From assembly GCA_022710245.1 (NCBI GenBank), contig JAKLHH010000345.1, positions 1 to 7,469 of the forward strand: a DNA stretch of 7,469 nucleotides, read 5' to 3'. This document shows, in pieces, positions 1 through 6,298 of this stretch. The stretch's first letter is position 1. Each line of letters opens with the position of its first letter. The notes under the pieces were generated by a model that had not been told where the DNA came from, did not search any database, and saw nothing but the letters and a program-made list of their open reading frames with translations. The position numbers and the translations under genes are program-made. The DNA is from Myxococcota bacterium. Its GTDB lineage: Bacteria > Myxococcota > Polyangia > GCA-2747355 > JAKLHH01.

Positions 1-2382
1 GGGGCGTTCGAGGCGAAGGACGTCGACGCCGACGGCGCGCTGGAGCTGGTCCTCACCCGCGGCACCGCGGACGGCCTGCCCTCGCCCCTGCTGGTCCCGG
101 GCAGCAACCTCGACCGCGCCTTCACCGTCTTCGCCAGCGGCCTCACCCCGCAGAAGGTCGCCGCCGCCACCGGACAGAGCAACGAGCTGCGCTTCACCCA
201 GGGCGCGATCGTCGACATCGACCTGCCCTTCAACCTGAGGCCGGGGGCGCAGCCGCTGCGGGTGATCGAGACCCGGCCCGCCGGCGGCGCCACGGCCAGC
301 GCCCCCACCGAGGCGGTGGTGGTCTTCTCGCGCGAGGTGGACCCGAGCAGCATCGCGGGCAACCTCAAGCTCACCTTCCTCGCCAGCTCGGGCGAGAAGG
401 TGCTGCCGGGGACCTGGAGCCTCAGCAGCGAGCAGGTGGGCGGGCAATCCGGGGACAAGCGCTCGGTGGCGACCCTCGCGCTCTGCGAGCTGGTGAGCGG
501 CAGCTACCGCCTCGACGCGCTGACCGGCCTCAAGGACAGCGAGGGCGGCGCGTTCGACCAGGACATCCGCCCCGGCCCCGACGCCTTCAGCGCCACCTTC
601 ACCGTGGTCGGCGGCACCGGCGAGGGCCCCTGCGCCGAGCACCCGGCCGTGCTGCCGCGAGCGGATCAGCAGACGGCCATCGTCGCCACGCTATGGAAGC
701 AGGTCCCCAAGACCGGACCCGTCGTCTGCTGGACCGCCGCGACGCCGCTCGCCGCCTCGGACAAGGGGCTCTGGGATCGCGGCGGCTACTCGAGCTGCGA
801 CGGCAAGGGCGAGCCGACCTGCGGGAAGGGCTCCCGCCGGGTCGTCACCGCCTCCACGCTGATGCCGGACACCACCACGCTGGAGATCTTCTACGCCTGC
901 GTGCTGACCGGGCAGGTGAAGGCGAGCAAGCTGGTCGCCACGCTCTCCCTCGACCACACCGCGCTCGGGCAGCTCACCTGCCGCACCGCCGCCGACCCGG
1001 CCGCGGCCGCGGTCGGCTACTGGGACCTCGGCGGCTACGCGAGCTGCGCGGGGACCGGCACCGCCCTCTGCACCAACGGCTCGCAGCCGCTGATCACCGC
1101 CGCGATGACCACCTCGGACGGCGGCAGGAAGTACGCGGTCGCCTGCCTGCTCCACGACCAGCCCCGCGACGCCAGCGTGGTCGCCACCCTGCGCGGCCGC
1201 GTCTCGAACCTCGGGGCGCCGGAGTGCACGCTCGCCGGCGATCCTGGCAGCGGCACCTGGGACCTCGACCGCTACGGCACCTGCGACAGCAGCAAGGTCC
1301 CGCTCTGCCAGAACGGCGCGCGCAAGGTGGTCATCGGGATGTACAGCTACCCGCTCTACACCGTCTACCAGTGCGCCTGCGTGATGACCGAGGGGACCGC
1401 GCTGCCGCAGACGAGCCCGCTGGTCGCCACGCTCTCCGGCTCGGGCACCGCGACCAGCGGCGAGAAGTGCTCGACCGGCGGCGACAGCTGGGACCTGGGG
1501 AGCTTCCGCCGCTGCGAGACGACCGGCGTCCCCAGCTGCGACGCGGGCGCGCGCCCGGTCGTCGACGGGATCTCGCTCGACGCCGCCGGCAACACTGTGC
1601 GCGACCTGGGCTGCGTCTTCCCGGTGCTCCTCTCCGGCGCGGAGGCCGGCAGCTTCGCTGACGGTCGCACGCTGGTCGTCTTCGCCCACCAGGACGACGA
1701 CCTCCTCTGGATGCAGCCCTTCTGGCCCTACGCGAGCAAGCTCGTCCTCGCGGCGATGCCGAGCATCCCCCTCTACGACGCCGTCCTCACCGGGTACCCG
1801 GCCTACTACCGGCAGCGCTGGAGCCACCCGCTCGGCCAGGTCACCGAGGCCGAGTTCAGCGCCACCTACCTCGACCCGTGCAAGCGCGAGGCGAAGGTCA
1901 CCCTGGCCTCGATCAAGGCGGCGCTGGAGCCGCTGATCAAGGACGCCGGCGTCGCGCGCGTCGTCACCCACAACCCCTGGGGCGAGTACGGCCACGCCCA
2001 GCACCGGCTGGTCAGCGCCGCGGTCCGCGAGCTGGCGGTCACGCAGCAGAAGGACGTCTGGGCCATCTCGGTGCGCGCCTCGAAGACGGCCGGCGGGACC
2101 TACCAGGACACCGGCGACCTGGGCGGGCTGCAGACCGTCACCGCGCGCTACGACCGCAGCCTGCTCCGCGCGCTGAAGGCCGTCTACCAGAGCCTCGCCA
2201 TCGCCCACGCCGGCGGGTCGATGGACCTCTGGACCTGGCACGACGGCGAGGACGAGTACCCCACCGGCGAGCGCCAGTACGTCAAGCTCGTCTCGGGCGG
2301 CAAGGACCTCACCGTCGGCAACACCGCGATCCAGCAGCTCGTGAGCAGCGTGCCCGAGAGCGGGAGCTGCGCCTCACCCTGA
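1..2382 (+). CDS. PIG-L/LmbE-type deacetylase domain protein with Cys-rich repeats (5' end missing)
   Basis: The frame is open from base 1 to the TGA at 2380-2382, giving 793 visible residues; the true start lies upstream. A GTG at 262 is in frame but lies inside the Ig-like domain, so it is unlikely to be the start. In order: a beta-rich piece with an acidic D-x-D-x-D-G stretch (residues about 7-12); an SbsA/Big_5-type Ig-like region (about 85-205); four tandem Cys-rich repeats (about 227-540); and a PIG-L family domain (about 555-760). The last carries the motif A-H-Q-D-D-D (His563, Asp565, Asp566) and a later H-A-Q-H (His665, His668), matching the zinc ligand and catalytic positions of GlcNAc-PI and MshB-type de-N-acetylases, which hydrolyse N-acetyl groups on amino sugars. 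Many paired cysteines and the Ig-like region suggest export and disulfides. The substrate is unknown. It converges on the methyltransferase gene. The PIG-L call is firm; function and location are inference. Confidence 0.85.
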   Translation, partial: GAFEAKDVDADGALELVLTRGTADGLPSPLLVPGSNLDRAFTVFASGLTPQKVAAATGQSNELRFTQGAIVDIDLPFNLRPGAQPLRVIETRPAGGATASAPTEAVVVFSREVDPSSIAGNLKLTFLASSGEKVLPGTWSLSSEQVGGQSGDKRSVATLALCELVSGSYRLDALTGLKDSEGGAFDQDIRPGPDAFSATFTVVGGTGEGPCAEHPAVLPRADQQTAIVATLWKQVPKTGPVVCWTAATPLAASDKGLWDRGGYSSCDGKGEPTCGKGSRRVVTASTLMPDTTTLEIFYACVLTGQVKASKLVATLSLDHTALGQLTCRTAADPAAAAVGYWDLGGYASCAGTGTALCTNGSQPLITAAMTTSDGGRKYAVACLLHDQPRDASVVATLRGRVSNLGAPECTLAGDPGSGTWDLDRYGTCDSSKVPLCQNGARKVVIGMYSYPLYTVYQCACVMTEGTALPQTSPLVATLSGSGTATSGEKCSTGGDSWDLGSFRRCETTGVPSCDAGARPVVDGISLDAAGNTVRDLGCVFPVLLSGAEAGSFADGRTLVVFAHQDDDLLWMQPFWPYASKLVLAAMPSIPLYDAVLTGYPAYYRQRWSHPLGQVTEAEFSATYLDPCKREAKVTLASIKAALEPLIKDAGVARVVTHNPWGEYGHAQHRLVSAAVRELAVTQQKDVWAISVRASKTAGGTYQDTGDLGGLQTVTARYDRSLLRALKAVYQSLAIAHAGGSMDLWTWHDGEDEYPTGERQYVKLVSGGKDLTVGNTAIQQLVSSVPESGSCASP
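679..1620 (+). repeat. four tandem Cys-rich protein repeats of 81-84 residues
   Basis: Four copies begin at about bases 679, 931, 1177 and 1420, each opening with [ILV]-V-A-T-L. Each then has a cysteine, the signature W-D-x3-[YF]-x2-C, a fixed C-x7-C, a basic or polar [KRQP]-[VPL]-[VI] stretch, and a fourth cysteine near the end. Four conserved cysteines per unit suggest two disulfides per repeat, so an extracytoplasmic module. The copies differ at most other positions, so this is an old duplication under structural constraint rather than recent DNA amplification. I do not recognise a named family for the unit. A carbohydrate- or surface-binding role beside the deacetylase domain is only a guess. 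Confidence 0.85.
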
Positions 2383-2405
2383 CCCCGATCGGCCTCTAGC
2401 TGATT

Positions 2406-2453
2406 TGGTCGCGGCAGCTTCGCCCGACCGCCCGACCTGGGCGGCGCCGCGAC
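2406..2453. repeat. palindromic intergenic element, copy 1
   Basis: An 8-base perfect inverted repeat (GTCGCGGC at 2408-2415, GCCGCGAC at 2446-2453) encloses a second stem (2420-2425 with 2439-2444, including one T-G pair) and an 11-13 base loop. It sits exactly between two convergent genes and abuts the minus-strand stop codon at 2454. Bases 2406-2450 match 6245-6289 at 39 of 45 positions. It may act as a bidirectional transcription barrier, but neither side has a clear T-run, so a plain intrinsic terminator is not well supported. A REP-like dispersed element fits the data better. Confidence 0.75.
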
Positions 2454-3596
2454 TCAGGCCTCGGCGGCGGCGAGGGCGGGCCGCTCGGCCCAGAGCAGGA
2501 AGTTGCCGCGGTGGAGCCAGGAGCTCGCCTGCTCCAGGCGGCAGCGCAGGCCGAGGCCCTCCAGCTCCGCGGCGAGCTCGCCTGCGGTGCGGAAGGAGAG
2601 CCCTGGCCCCTTGTTCCAGCCGAGGCGCACGGCGAGCCCCTCGATGGCTCGGGTGAGCAGCGAGGGCGCGCGGCGATCGGTCTCGCGGATGACCAGCCGG
2701 CCGCCGGGCCGCAGCGCCGCCGCGGCCCGCTCGAGGAGCGTGTGCTGCTCGACGAGCGGGTAATAGTGGAGGAGATCGACGAGGAGGATGGCGTCGGTGG
2801 GCGGCAGCGGGTGCGCCCGCGCGTCGGCCTCGATCAGCTCGACGCTGCCCAGGCCGGCGCACGCCCCGCGCGCGCTGGCGACCTTCTTGCCGTCCCACTC
2901 CACGCCGAGGACCCGCGCTGCCTGGCCGCGTGTCGCGAGGAGCACCGGCAGGAGCGCGAGCCCGGTGCCGAGGTCGACCACCGTCTCCGCCAGACCCAGC
3001 CCCTCGCAGACCTGACGGTAGACCGGATCCATGCGCAGCTTCGAGGCGAGGTAGCCGCGGTGCCCGCGTGAGGCGCCCGCGTAGCGCGCGAGCGCGGCGC
3101 GGCCGGCCTCGCGCCAGGCGGCCTCGCGGGCCGCGGCCTCGGGGGAGGCGGCGCAGCGGCGGCGCCAGCGGATGACGAGCCCGGTCAGCAGCCCGACCGG
3201 CAGCCCGAGCGCGACGCCGACGAGGAGACCGCCGAGGAGCCAGGAGAGGAAGAAGGTGCGGACCAGGCCCGGGAGCCGGGTCAGCGCGAAGTCCGCCGCG
3301 CCGAGGTGGAGCCAGGCGCCGGAGAGGAGGCGCGCGCCGACCTGCACGCTGGCGAAGCCGAGCAGCGGCGCCAGCGGCGGGATGGAGATCTGCGAGCCAA
3401 GGAAGACGGCGACCTTGTTCAGGCGCAGCAGCAGGGCGAGGCCGAGCCCGAGGGGCAGGTGCAGGCCGAAGAAGGGCGAGCAGCCGATCACCACCCCGAG
3501 GCCGACGGCGAGCCCGAGGCGCGCCGGGCTCGCGTGCTCGCGCCAGAGGCGGCGCGCGAGGTGGCGGAGGCTGCGCTTGGGGTCGCGGGGGGCCAT
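2454..3596 (-). CDS. DUF2062 membrane domain fused to SAM-dependent methyltransferase
   Basis: 380 residues from ATG at 3594-3596 to TGA at 2454-2456. Residues about 10-145 form a DUF2062-type domain: a basic amphipathic start, hydrophobic segments at about 27-57, 62-91 and 115-142, the G-C-S-P-F-F-G-L-H patch at 38-46 and R-L-N-K at 58-61. A basic R-W-R-R-R follows at 143-147, as expected at a cytoplasmic membrane edge. Residues about 180-370 are a class I methyltransferase: motif I V-V-D-L-G-T-G (206-212), an acidic ribose-binding position E233 in G-V-E-W-D, A-D at 257-258, D-L-L-H-Y-Y (274-279), and the L-R-P-G-G-R strand. The D-L-L-H-Y form resembles methyltransferases found in aryl polyene and lipid gene sets, so a membrane-held small-molecule or lipid methylase is plausible; the substrate is unknown. 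No Shine-Dalgarno sequence precedes the ATG. It is divergent from the helicase gene. Confidence 0.85.
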   Translation of the reverse strand: MAPRDPKRSLRHLARRLWREHASPARLGLAVGLGVVIGCSPFFGLHLPLGLGLALLLRLNKVAVFLGSQISIPPLAPLLGFASVQVGARLLSGAWLHLGAADFALTRLPGLVRTFFLSWLLGGLLVGVALGLPVGLLTGLVIRWRRRCAASPEAAAREAAWREAGRAALARYAGASRGHRGYLASKLRMDPVYRQVCEGLGLAETVVDLGTGLALLPVLLATRGQAARVLGVEWDGKKVASARGACAGLGSVELIEADARAHPLPPTDAILLVDLLHYYPLVEQHTLLERAAAALRPGGRLVIRETDRRAPSLLTRAIEGLAVRLGWNKGPGLSFRTAGELAAELEGLGLRCRLEQASSWLHRGNFLLWAERPALAAAEA

Positions 3597-3701: not shown

Positions 3702-6218
3702 GTGGACTTCGAACGCGAGCTCAACCCACGGCAGCTCGAGGCTGTCCTGCAGACGAGCGGCCCGCTGCTGGTCCTCGCCGGCGCCGGCAGCGGGAAGACC
3801 CGCGTCATCACCTACCGCATCGCCAACCTGATCCAGTCCGGCGTCCCCGCGCACGGCATCCTGGCGGTCACCTTCACCAACAAGGCCGCCGGCGAGATGC
3901 GCGAGCGCGCCGAGAAGCTCCTCGGCGGCAGCGCCGCCGGGCTCTGGATCGGCACCTTCCACTCCATCTGCGCGCGCCTCCTGCGCATGCACGGGCAGCC
4001 GGTCGGGCTCTCGCGCAACTTCACCATCTACGACGACGACGACCAGCTCGCGCTGCTCAAGCGCATCCTCACCGACCTCGGCGTCCCCGAGCGGCTCTTC
4101 GCCCCGCGCGAGATCCTCTGGCGCATCGACCGGGCGAAGAACGAGGGCATCCGCCCGGAGAGCTACCAGGGCGAGGACTACTTCACCGACCTCGTCGCCA
4201 AGGTCTACCCGGAGTTCGAGCGGCGCCTGCTCGCCGCCGACGCGGTGGACTTCGGCAACCTGCTGCTGAAGGCGGTCGAGCTCCTGCGCGTCGACACCCA
4301 GCTCGCCGAGCGGCTCTCGCGGCGCTTCGAGCAGGTCCTCGTCGACGAGTTCCAGGACACCAACGCGGTCCAGTACGAGCTGGTGCGCCTGCTCAGCGCC
4401 CAGCACGGGAACCTCTGCGTGGTCGGCGACGACGATCAGTCGATCTACGGCTGGCGCGGCGCCGACATCCGCAACATCCTCGGCTTCGAGAAGGACCACC
4501 CCAGCGCGACGGTGGTCAAGCTCGAGCAGAACTATCGCTCGACCCAGGTCATCCTCGACGCGGCGGGCGCGGTCATCTCGCACAACGCGGGCCGCAAGCC
4601 GAAGACGCTGTGGACCGACCAGAAGGGCGGCGAGCCGATCACGCTCTACGAGTGCGAGGACGAGCGCGCCGAGGCGAGCCTGGTGCTGACCAAGATGCTG
4701 CAGCTCCGCACCCAGGGGCGCAGCTTCGGTCAGTTCGCCGTCTTCTACCGCACCCACGCGCAGTCGCGCGTGCTCGAGGACGCGCTCCGCTCGGCGCGGC
4801 CGCCGGTCCCCTACTCGGTGGTCGGTGGCATCCGCTTCTACGACCGCGCCGAGATCAAGGACCTGATCGCCTACCTGAAGGTGCTGGTCAACCCGGCCGA
4901 CGAGGTGGCGCTGCTCCGCATCATCAATGTCCCCACGCGCGGCATCGGCGAGAGCACCATCGAGCGCTGCGCGGCGCGGGCGCGGCGGGAGGGGATCTCG
5001 CTCCTCGAGGCGGTGCGCCGCTCGTCCCAGAGTCCCGCGGGCTCATCCCGGAGCCTCCCGCAGGGAGGCGAGGACCAGGACTCGGACGACGACGAGCTCC
5101 GCTCCGGGCCGCGGCGCAAGCTCGCCTCCTTCGTCGAGCTCTACGACGAGCTCGCCGCCGAGGCGCCCAAGGTGCCGCCCTCGCGCCTGGCCGAGGTGGT
5201 GCTCGAGCGGAGCGGCTACCTCGAGCGCCTGGCGATCGACGGCTCCAGCGAGGCGCAGAGCCGGATCGACAACCTCGGCGCCATGGTCTCCTCGCTCCAC
5301 GACTACGAGCGCGAGGCCCACGAGCCGACCCTCGCCGGCTTCCTCGAGCAGGTCGCGCTCGCCTCCAGCGTGGACGCCTACGCCGAGAGCGAGGGGCGGG
5401 TCACGCTGATGACCGTACACAGCGCCAAGGGCCTCGAGTTCCCCGTCGTCTTCATCGTCGGGCTGGAGCAGGGCATCTTCCCGCACAGCCGCTCGCTCGG
5501 CGACCTCGACCAGATGGAGGAGGAGCGCCGCCTCGCCTACGTGGCCATCACCCGCGCCCGCGAGCTCCTCTTCCTCAGCCACGCGCGCGAGCGCGGCGTC
5601 TTCGGGCAGGTGCAGCAGAACGAGCCCTCCGACTTCCTGCGCCACATCCCGGAGCACCTCCTCGCCGCGCCGGCGCAGCGCTTCCGCTCGGTGCACGCGG
5701 CGATGGCGCCGCGGCAGACCGGGCCGATGCGCCCCACCTCGCGCACCGGCCCCGCTGCCTCATCCCGGAGGGGCCCGCAGGGACGCGAGGACCGGGGCCC
5801 GCACCGACCGGTCCGCCCCTCGACCGGCCCGCAGCCGACGGTGGCTCGGCCCGCCGCGCCGCGCCCCGCTCCTCGCAGCGAGGGCAGCGGCCGCCAGGAG
5901 CGCCTGCCCTGGGAGCAGGAGGCGCCGGCGAGCCTGCGCGCCGCCTGGAGCGAGGCGCCCCGCCAGGAGCGCGCGTCCGACGAGGTCTGGGTCGACCGCA
6001 GCTTCGATCAGAGCTCCGGCGACTTCGACCAGAGCGCGCCCGACGAGGACGCGGGCGGCGGGGGCAGCTTCCGCGTGGGCCAGCGCGTGCAGCACCCGAA
6101 GTTCGGCGTCGGCACCATCCGCGTCATCACCGGCGCGCCGCCGAACCAGAACCTCACCATCTACTTCCAGCAGCTCGGGGCGCGGACCATCCGCGCGCAG
6201 TTCGTGCAGCCCGCCTGA
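3702..6218 (+). CDS. pcrA: UvrD/PcrA-type superfamily 1A DNA helicase
   Basis: 838 residues from GTG 3702 to TGA 6216-6218; the start places L-N-P-R-Q (Q-motif region) at residues 7-11, as in PcrA. Superfamily 1A motifs are complete: Walker A A-G-A-G-S-G-K-T (26-33), Ia T-F-T-N-K-A-A near 58, II D-E-F-Q-D-T (215-220), III G-D-D-D-Q-S-I-Y-G-W-R-G (242-253), IV Q-N-Y-R-S-T (276-281), V T-V-H-S-A-K-G-L-E-F (571-580) and VI E-R-R-L-A-Y-V-A-I-T-R-A-R (608-620). The family unwinds DNA 3' to 5' using ATP in excision and mismatch repair, and removes RecA filaments. The C-terminus (about 790-836) is the Tudor-like domain that in PcrA/UvrD contacts RNA polymerase. It exceeds the roughly 720-residue PcrA length because of an approximately 20-residue insert near 445-465 and a long Pro/Arg/Ser-rich linker at about 665-788. 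Both extras contain copies of one palindromic DNA element. The ATPase appears intact. Confidence 0.96.
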   Translation: MDFERELNPRQLEAVLQTSGPLLVLAGAGSGKTRVITYRIANLIQSGVPAHGILAVTFTNKAAGEMRERAEKLLGGSAAGLWIGTFHSICARLLRMHGQPVGLSRNFTIYDDDDQLALLKRILTDLGVPERLFAPREILWRIDRAKNEGIRPESYQGEDYFTDLVAKVYPEFERRLLAADAVDFGNLLLKAVELLRVDTQLAERLSRRFEQVLVDEFQDTNAVQYELVRLLSAQHGNLCVVGDDDQSIYGWRGADIRNILGFEKDHPSATVVKLEQNYRSTQVILDAAGAVISHNAGRKPKTLWTDQKGGEPITLYECEDERAEASLVLTKMLQLRTQGRSFGQFAVFYRTHAQSRVLEDALRSARPPVPYSVVGGIRFYDRAEIKDLIAYLKVLVNPADEVALLRIINVPTRGIGESTIERCAARARREGISLLEAVRRSSQSPAGSSRSLPQGGEDQDSDDDELRSGPRRKLASFVELYDELAAEAPKVPPSRLAEVVLERSGYLERLAIDGSSEAQSRIDNLGAMVSSLHDYEREAHEPTLAGFLEQVALASSVDAYAESEGRVTLMTVHSAKGLEFPVVFIVGLEQGIFPHSRSLGDLDQMEEERRLAYVAITRARELLFLSHARERGVFGQVQQNEPSDFLRHIPEHLLAAPAQRFRSVHAAMAPRQTGPMRPTSRTGPAASSRRGPQGREDRGPHRPVRPSTGPQPTVARPAAPRPAPRSEGSGRQERLPWEQEAPASLRAAWSEAPRQERASDEVWVDRSFDQSSGDFDQSAPDEDAGGGGSFRVGQRVQHPKFGVGTIRVITGAPPNQNLTIYFQQLGARTIRAQFVQPA
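5031..5084 (+). repeat. in-gene palindromic element, copy A
   Basis: This 54-base segment lies inside the helicase gene and matches 5748-5801 at 43 of 54 positions, without gaps. Its ends pair (AGTCC 5031-5035 with GGACT 5078-5082). A central hairpin has seven perfect pairs (5053-5059 with 5063-5069) around a GCA loop. It encodes about 18 residues (S-P-A-G-S-S-R-S-L-P-Q-G-G-E-D-Q-D-S), close to the extra length this protein has relative to PcrA at the same place, in the 2B region between E-A-V-R-R and K-L-A-S-F. It looks like an in-frame insertion in a surface loop. Confidence 0.75.
5748..5801 (+). repeat. in-gene palindromic element, copy B
   Basis: Second copy, 717 bases (239 codons) after copy A, in the same orientation and reading frame. 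It lies in the disordered linker before the Tudor-like domain and encodes G-P-A-A-S-S-R-R-G-P-Q-G-R-E-D-R-G-P. The terminal stem is GGCCCC (5748-5753) with GGGGCC (5794-5799). The central hairpin keeps five of seven pairs around the same GCA loop. Three base pairs differ from copy A by compensatory double changes. Confidence 0.75.
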
Positions 6219-6231
6219 GCTTTGCGTCGCG

Positions 6232-6298
6232 GCCGCTCCTGTTCTGGTCGCGGCAGCTCTGCGCGACTGCCCGGCCTGCGCGGCGCCGCTCCTGTTCT
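6232..6298 (+). repeat. 14-base direct repeats flanking palindromic element copy 2
   Basis: GCCGCTCCTGTTCT occurs at 6232-6245 and again at 6285-6298, 53 bases apart, bracketing the palindromic element. The first copy starts only 14 bases after the helicase stop codon. It may be what remains of an earlier tandem unit, or a trace of insertion. A GTCGCGGC element end also occurs at 6226-6233, just before the first copy. Confidence 0.8.
6245..6289. repeat. palindromic intergenic element, copy 2 (possible helicase-gene terminator)
   Basis: It matches 2406-2450 at 39 of 45 positions. The outer stem is shorter (GCGGC 6250-6254 with GCCGC 6285-6289). The inner stem (6259-6264 with 6278-6283) is fully kept through paired changes. 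Downstream lies a pyrimidine tract with several Ts (6290-6301), so this copy could end transcription of the helicase gene, though the tract is interrupted. Confidence 0.7.

What the first reader, a model, noticed from the sequence alone, without database searches (positions are those of the whole stretch)
5031..5801. Palindromic element inserted twice in frame in a helicase gene, with compensatory changes
Two 54-base copies (5031-5084 and 5748-5801) share 43 positions. Of the 11 differences, six form three paired double substitutions that preserve pairing: 5031/5082 A-T versus G-C, 5033/5080 T-A versus C-G, and 5055/5067 C-G versus G-C. Codon-level selection does not predict this, so the nucleic acid fold itself appears conserved. 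Copy A accounts for nearly all of an insert of about 20 residues relative to PcrA. Rickettsial palindromic elements inserted in frame in coding genes are the closest known analogy; I know of no such family described for this kind of genome.
Basis: partly seen in the sequence, partly recalled or inferred. Interest (0 to 1): 0.8.

Follow-up and report, generated by a model that had tools for sequence, protein, structure and literature searches.

The report
Short repeat twice in helicase gene
A stretch of about 54 DNA letters occurs twice, in the same reading frame, in two floppy loops of an ordinary DNA-repair helicase gene; the repeat is real, but the claim that its folded shape is being preserved cannot be shown from two copies, and similar insertions are already known in other bacteria.

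Summary
The repeat is real. Copies A (5031-5084) and B (5748-5801) match at 43 of 54 positions, well above codon-shuffled controls. They lie in one orientation and frame of a pcrA/uvrD gene from an uncultured, probably Myxococcota-like bacterium. Both encode flexible linkers: a low-confidence coil between two helices (A) and the disordered tail before the tudor domain (B). The loop holding A is 36 residues against a median of 19 in 119 homologues.

The fold claim does not survive a fair test. Neither copy is unusually stable.

No further copy was found in the window, and no convincing one in 377 sampled genomes of the presumed phylum; the window's own genome is not held. Best reading: two intragenic copies of a REP-like dispersed repeat, tolerated in linkers, as published for uvrA, uvrB and UvrD-type genes. 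A one-off intragenic duplication is a close rival. A second, unrelated stem-loop repeat follows two stop codons in this window.

The parts
5031..5084 (+). Copy A of the repeat; encodes residues 444-461 (SPAGSSRSLPQGGEDQDS)
   Evidence: 43/54 identical to copy B; lies in the coil 443-467 between helices 434-442 and 468-490, mean pLDDT 73, 56 and 73 for residues 441-450, 451-460 and 461-470; loop 36 residues vs median 19 in 119 homologues
5748..5801 (+). Copy B of the repeat; encodes residues 683-700 (GPAASSRRGPQGREDRGP) in the C-terminal linker
   Evidence: lies inside the segment 658-787 with pLDDT below 50
5042..5076 (+). Best-conserved core of copy A (31 of 35 identical to 5759-5793)
   Evidence: blastn 88.6% over 35
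5759..5793 (+). Best-conserved core of copy B
3702..6218 (+). pcrA/uvrD-type helicase gene (838 aa, GTG start) that hosts both copies
   Evidence: ORF; Pfam UvrD-helicase 4.7e-89, UvrD_C 1.2e-75, PcrA_UvrD_tudor 1.8e-7
2400..2450 (+). Separate stem-loop repeat C, starting 18 bases after the end of the stop codon at 2380-2382; unrelated to A/B
   Evidence: 43/51 identical to 6239-6289; 2400-2455 folds at -28.5 kcal/mol
6239..6289 (+). Separate stem-loop repeat D, starting 21 bases after the end of the helicase stop codon
   Evidence: 6239-6294 folds at -21.7 kcal/mol

Best explanation
The two copies are old, degenerate intragenic insertions of one short (about 43-54 base) REP-like dispersed repeat of this bacterium's chromosome. 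They survive because each landed in frame in a stretch that encodes a flexible linker of PcrA/UvrD (a loop between two helices, by recall in subdomain 2B, and the tail before the tudor domain), where roughly 18 extra hydrophilic residues are harmless. The element's own spread would depend on a hairpin-recognising activity in trans, as proposed for GTAG REPs and their RAYT transposases. Shown: the repeat, its frame, the linker positions and the enlarged loop at copy A. Inferred: that it belongs to a dispersed family, that it moved as an element, and that the protein is unharmed.
For: Repeat beyond chance. Differences fall 4/4/3 on codon positions 1/2/3, so there is no sign that the peptide is what is conserved, although 11 differences are few. 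Both sites are flexible in the model: low-confidence coil for A, pLDDT below 50 for B. The loop at copy A is 17 residues over the median of 119 homologues, close to the 18 codons of the repeat. Homologues lack the peptide: 5-residue words of A or B occur in 4 of 130 comparison sequences, one word each. A second ~50-base stem-loop repeat in the same window lies just 3' of two stop codons, where REPs usually sit (PMC3733652 section 15). Published intragenic REPs include UvrD/REP helicase and genes hit twice, and more than half of those inserts are dimers or groups that encode 20-30 residues.
Against: No third copy in the window (best other match 31 of 54) and no convincing copy in 377 genomes of the presumed phylum with either copy as query. 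Palindromicity and covariation are within or near chance. Same gene, same strand and same frame also fit a local duplication. No GTAG or CGTC tag shared at one end (read by eye). Loops as long or longer than the one at A occur in 6 of 119 homologues without this repeat's peptide, so the extra length does not itself prove an insertion.
Confidence: 0.5

Rival explanations
1. A one-off duplication inside the gene: a segment of about 50 bases was copied from one linker to the other (template switching or microhomology-mediated repair) and both copies then drifted. There is no mobile family.
For: Only two copies known, both in one gene, same strand, same frame, 717 bases apart; none elsewhere in the window and no convincing one in 377 sampled genomes. 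The loop at copy A enlarges independently in relatives: 13 of 119 homologues have 27 residues or more.
Against: Non-tandem self-matches of this quality are unusual: in 92 GC-rich control chunks the best seen at spacing over 200 is 39 of 54. The chromosome carries another dispersed stem-loop repeat.
Confidence: 0.36
2. A structured RNA or DNA element whose fold is under selection (mRNA regulation, protein binding), conserved in both copies by compensatory change.
For: Three compensated pairs and no broken pair in the RNAalifold consensus of 5030-5085 and 5747-5802; its energy is reached in 4.1% and 5.05% of simulations from copy A.
Confidence: 0.07
3. A peptide motif with a protein function used twice in the helicase.
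For: 10 of 18 residues identical between the two peptides.
Against: No excess of third-position differences (4/4/3); none of 130 comparison sequences shares more than one 5-residue word with either peptide; a search with the copy B region (residues 674-713) returned only the window's own protein, out of 9 candidates scored (a low-power search, and copy A was not searched).
Confidence: 0.05
4. Chance similarity of GC-rich linker-coding sequence.
For: Window is 73.8% GC and linkers are low in complexity.
Against: 44 of 54 against at most 40 in 700 codon shuffles and at most 39 seen in real controls at spacing over 200.
Confidence: 0.02

Closest known systems
Intragenic REPs of the GTAG and CGTC superfamilies (Di Nocera et al. 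2013, PMC3733652)
   Same: Short hairpin-forming repeats inside DNA-repair genes including UvrD/REP helicase; some genes hit twice; the authors suggest insertions may be neutral in flexible linkers or loops. Inserts are often dimers or groups encoding 20-30 residues; the 18 codons and two adjacent hairpins of the consensus fold here would fit a dimer (inference).
   Different: No tag shared at one end of A and B; not shown to be high copy; no RAYT seen; host lineage differs.
Rickettsial palindromic elements (RPE)
   Same: In-frame insertion of a palindromic-looking element in coding genes.
   Different: Sequences not compared here; lineage differs; the palindrome here is weak and multi-copy status unproven.
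Extragenic REP or terminator-like stem-loops (repeat C/D of this window)
   Same: About 50 bases, two copies within the same contig.
   Different: Unrelated sequence, intergenic, starting 18-21 bases after stop codons; copy C forms one long hairpin.

Membership tests
REP (GTAG/CGTC superfamilies) | Palindromic stem-loop beyond background | tested here: inconclusive
   Fold z-scores -1.17 to +0.19; outer stems 6 and 7 bp, helices of 6 bp or more in 42 of 352 windows of the gene
REP (GTAG/CGTC superfamilies) | Unpaired GTAG or CGTC tag at one end | tested here: not met
   Read by eye on the two copies: no GTAG or CTAC in either; GACG (CGTC on the other strand) inside B and just outside A, at non-equivalent places
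REP (GTAG/CGTC superfamilies) | Many copies in the genome, mostly intergenic | not testable with these tools
   Own genome not held; none in the rest of the window
REP (GTAG/CGTC superfamilies) | Associated RAYT transposase (GTAG type) | not testable with these tools
   No genome held; Pfam scan of four ORFs of the window shows no transposase
Rickettsial palindromic element | In-frame insertion in a coding gene, absent from relatives | tested here: inconclusive
   Enlarged loop, and peptide missing in 119 homologues, but the nearest are 68% identical and no relative's DNA with an empty site was read
Rickettsial palindromic element | Sequence homology to RPE families, Rickettsia host | not tested
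   RPE sequences were not fetched; the helicase tree groups the window with metagenome and MAG proteins, some named Deltaproteobacteria or Myxococcales
PcrA/UvrD helicase (host gene) | UvrD N- and C-terminal domains, tudor tail | tested here: met

The most novel reading that the evidence does not exclude
A previously undescribed family of palindromic, possibly dimeric elements in an uncultured Myxococcota-like lineage that inserts into protein-coding genes in a preferred frame, adds a disordered peptide to repair proteins, and is kept foldable by compensatory change.
Probability: 0.12. Interest if true: 0.6.

Novelty: new member of a known kind. Interest (0 to 1): 0.3.

Why it matters
If the repeat is a dispersed family, it adds one more case to the puzzle that intragenic REPs turn up in repair helicases and excinucleases, and extends it to a lineage for which the rows listed by my six paper searches showed no such report. 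If it is a local duplication, it is a modest example of linker growth. It also shows that compensated pairs between two GC-rich copies are weak evidence for a conserved fold.

Tried and rejected
Conserved fold: set aside as unproven after RNAalifold of 5030-5085 with 5747-5802 (56 positions, 13 differences) and 2,000 simulated pairs in each of three nulls.

Other copies: nhmmer and blastn over 87 sequences (window and the loci then held) gave only A and B as significant. Whole genomes, overlapping sets: 4 reached through loci (copy B, best E 0.017); 20 relatives of G003 (copy B, 4 of 20 at E 0.01 or less, best 3.3e-5 in G006); 140 (copy B, 1 of 140 at E 1e-4 or less, the same G006 place); 377 (copy A, 2 of 377 at E 0.001 or less); 377 (copy B, 5 of 377 at E 0.001 or less, G006 among them). 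In some searches at most two candidates a genome were scored. The G006 place lies in an ORF that I recognise by eye as YggS-like and reads as ordinary protein sequence (no family search was run on it). The other places are partial matches of 25-45 bases, one of them 24 of 25 (L131).

Viral contigs: five pattern scans gave 0, 0, 0, 0 and 1 hit (57 was for repeat C/D). The one hit lacks the first half of the element. Plasmids: one marginal match, E 0.4. Peptide search of residues 674-713: the window's own protein only. Rfam: two matches below the gathering score elsewhere in the window, none at the copies.

Closer relatives: among the 30 loci kept from 282 genomes the best helicase is 50% identical, and G003 has 53%.

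Full report
Observation. Copies A (5031-5084) and B (5748-5801) agree at 43 of 54 positions, in the same orientation and frame (spacing 717 bases). The best 54-base pair in the helicase gene, and in the window, scores 44 on this diagonal; codon shuffles reach at most 39 (100 shuffles) and 40 (600 shuffles). In 92 real GC-rich chunks of 2,517 bases from fetched loci of several phyla, with the best pair per chunk kept, scores of 43 or more occur in 4, all at spacing 61-122 bases; the best seen at spacing over 200 is 39. The repeat is therefore real. The copies differ by 20%, so it is not a simple assembly duplication, though only one contig carries this protein.

Setting. The window is a 7,469-base contig whose genome is not held. 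The gene is a complete pcrA/uvrD-type helicase. Its closest proteins are 68% identical (P0002, P0003). A tree of the 120 listed homologues (of 7,999 scored) and 11 loci groups it with metagenome and MAG proteins; the few that carry a taxon name say Deltaproteobacteria, Proteobacteria, Pseudomonadota, Myxococcales or Polyangia. A Myxococcota-like host is inferred, not shown. The phylum searched below is that of G114, reached from a locus titled Myxococcales, and is assumed to be the window's.

Where the copies sit. An AlphaFold2 model from 54 aligned sequences (mean pLDDT 80.4) puts copy A (residues 444-461) wholly in a coil between helices 434-442 and 468-490, with block means 73, 56 and 73; by recall of PcrA/UvrD structures this is in subdomain 2B. 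Copy B (683-700) lies in the segment 658-787 with pLDDT below 50. The loop at A, between fixed anchors and counting them, is 36 residues; the median of 119 others is 19, and P0005, P0007 and P0009 have 22. Six of the 119 have loops as long or longer and 13 have 27 or more; in the nearest of these the sequence is unrelated. The C-terminal linker is 117 residues against a median of 53, more than copy B alone explains.

Is the fold conserved? The three double substitutions are present. Random substitution of A at the same number of random positions gives 3 or more compensated pairs in 122 of 2,000 simulations (6.1%); at the same positions in 409 of 2,000 (20.5%); from B at random positions in 158 of 2,000 (7.9%). 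The consensus energy is reached in 4.1% and 5.05% of the two sets started from A. Each copy alone folds no better than its shuffles. This is suggestive at most. The even spread of the 11 differences over codon positions (4/4/3) gives no sign of selection on the peptide, but the number is small.

Other copies. None in the window (next best 31 of 54). In genomes of the presumed phylum, 2 of 377 matched copy A and 5 of 377 matched copy B at E 0.001 or less, with at most two candidates scored in each genome. All seven are partial; the one in G006 reads as ordinary coding sequence and the others are in or near the score range of shuffled queries. These genomes are distant: the best helicase in the 30 loci kept from 282 of them is 50% identical. 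Some REP families are species-specific (PMC3733652 abstract), so absence there says little about the own genome.

A second repeat. C (2400-2450) and D (6239-6289) match at 43 of 51, start 18 and 21 bases after two stop codons, and fold at -28.5 and -21.7 kcal/mol as 56-base segments. They carry one compensated pair, which is within chance (1 or more in 1,262 of 2,000 simulations; consensus energy reached in 8%). They show that stem-loop repeats of about 50 bases are present on this chromosome in the usual REP position.

Comparison with print. Of PMC3733652 I read the outline and abstract, passages, section 15 and the first of two parts of section 17. It reports REPs inside genes, many for replication and repair; names UvrD/REP helicase, uvrA and uvrB; describes genes hit twice; [quoted passage not shown] and suggests that insertions may be neutral in linkers or loops, while also speculating that repair genes may have been targeted with effect. 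So the analogy is closer than rickettsial elements alone. Of PMC2635572 I saw passages only; other papers I saw as listed rows with the start of the abstract. In those rows I saw no report of this repeat or of intragenic REPs in Myxococcota; the lists were cut at 10-15 rows where more papers matched, and many subscription papers are not held. That RAYTs mobilise GTAG REPs is a published hypothesis (abstract).

Verdict. Most likely two degenerate intragenic copies of a REP-like repeat in tolerant linkers (0.5), with a one-off duplication close behind (0.36). Conserved fold: not established. Membership in the GTAG/CGTC superfamilies is not claimed, since no shared tag was found; it resembles what intragenic REPs do.

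Noticed in passing
window 2400-2450 and 6239-6289: A second, unrelated repeat pair (43 of 51 identical) with a stem-loop, starting 18 and 21 bases after the stop codons of two genes; probably a REP or terminator-like family.
   Followed up: partly
window 765-1516: Four copies of a 35-base repeat at spacing 231-249 bases (D1), apparently repeated cysteine-containing modules in a large protein whose C-terminal part matches PIG-L weakly (E 1.6e-4, below Pfam's cut-off).
   Followed up: no
window 2454-3596, minus strand: ORF with an N-terminal DUF2062 domain and a C-terminal methyltransferase domain in one protein.
   Followed up: no
homologues P0002, P0004, P0006, P0008, P0022: The same loop carries long insertions of unrelated sequence in several of the nearest homologues, so it may be a hot spot of linker growth in this clade.
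   Followed up: partly
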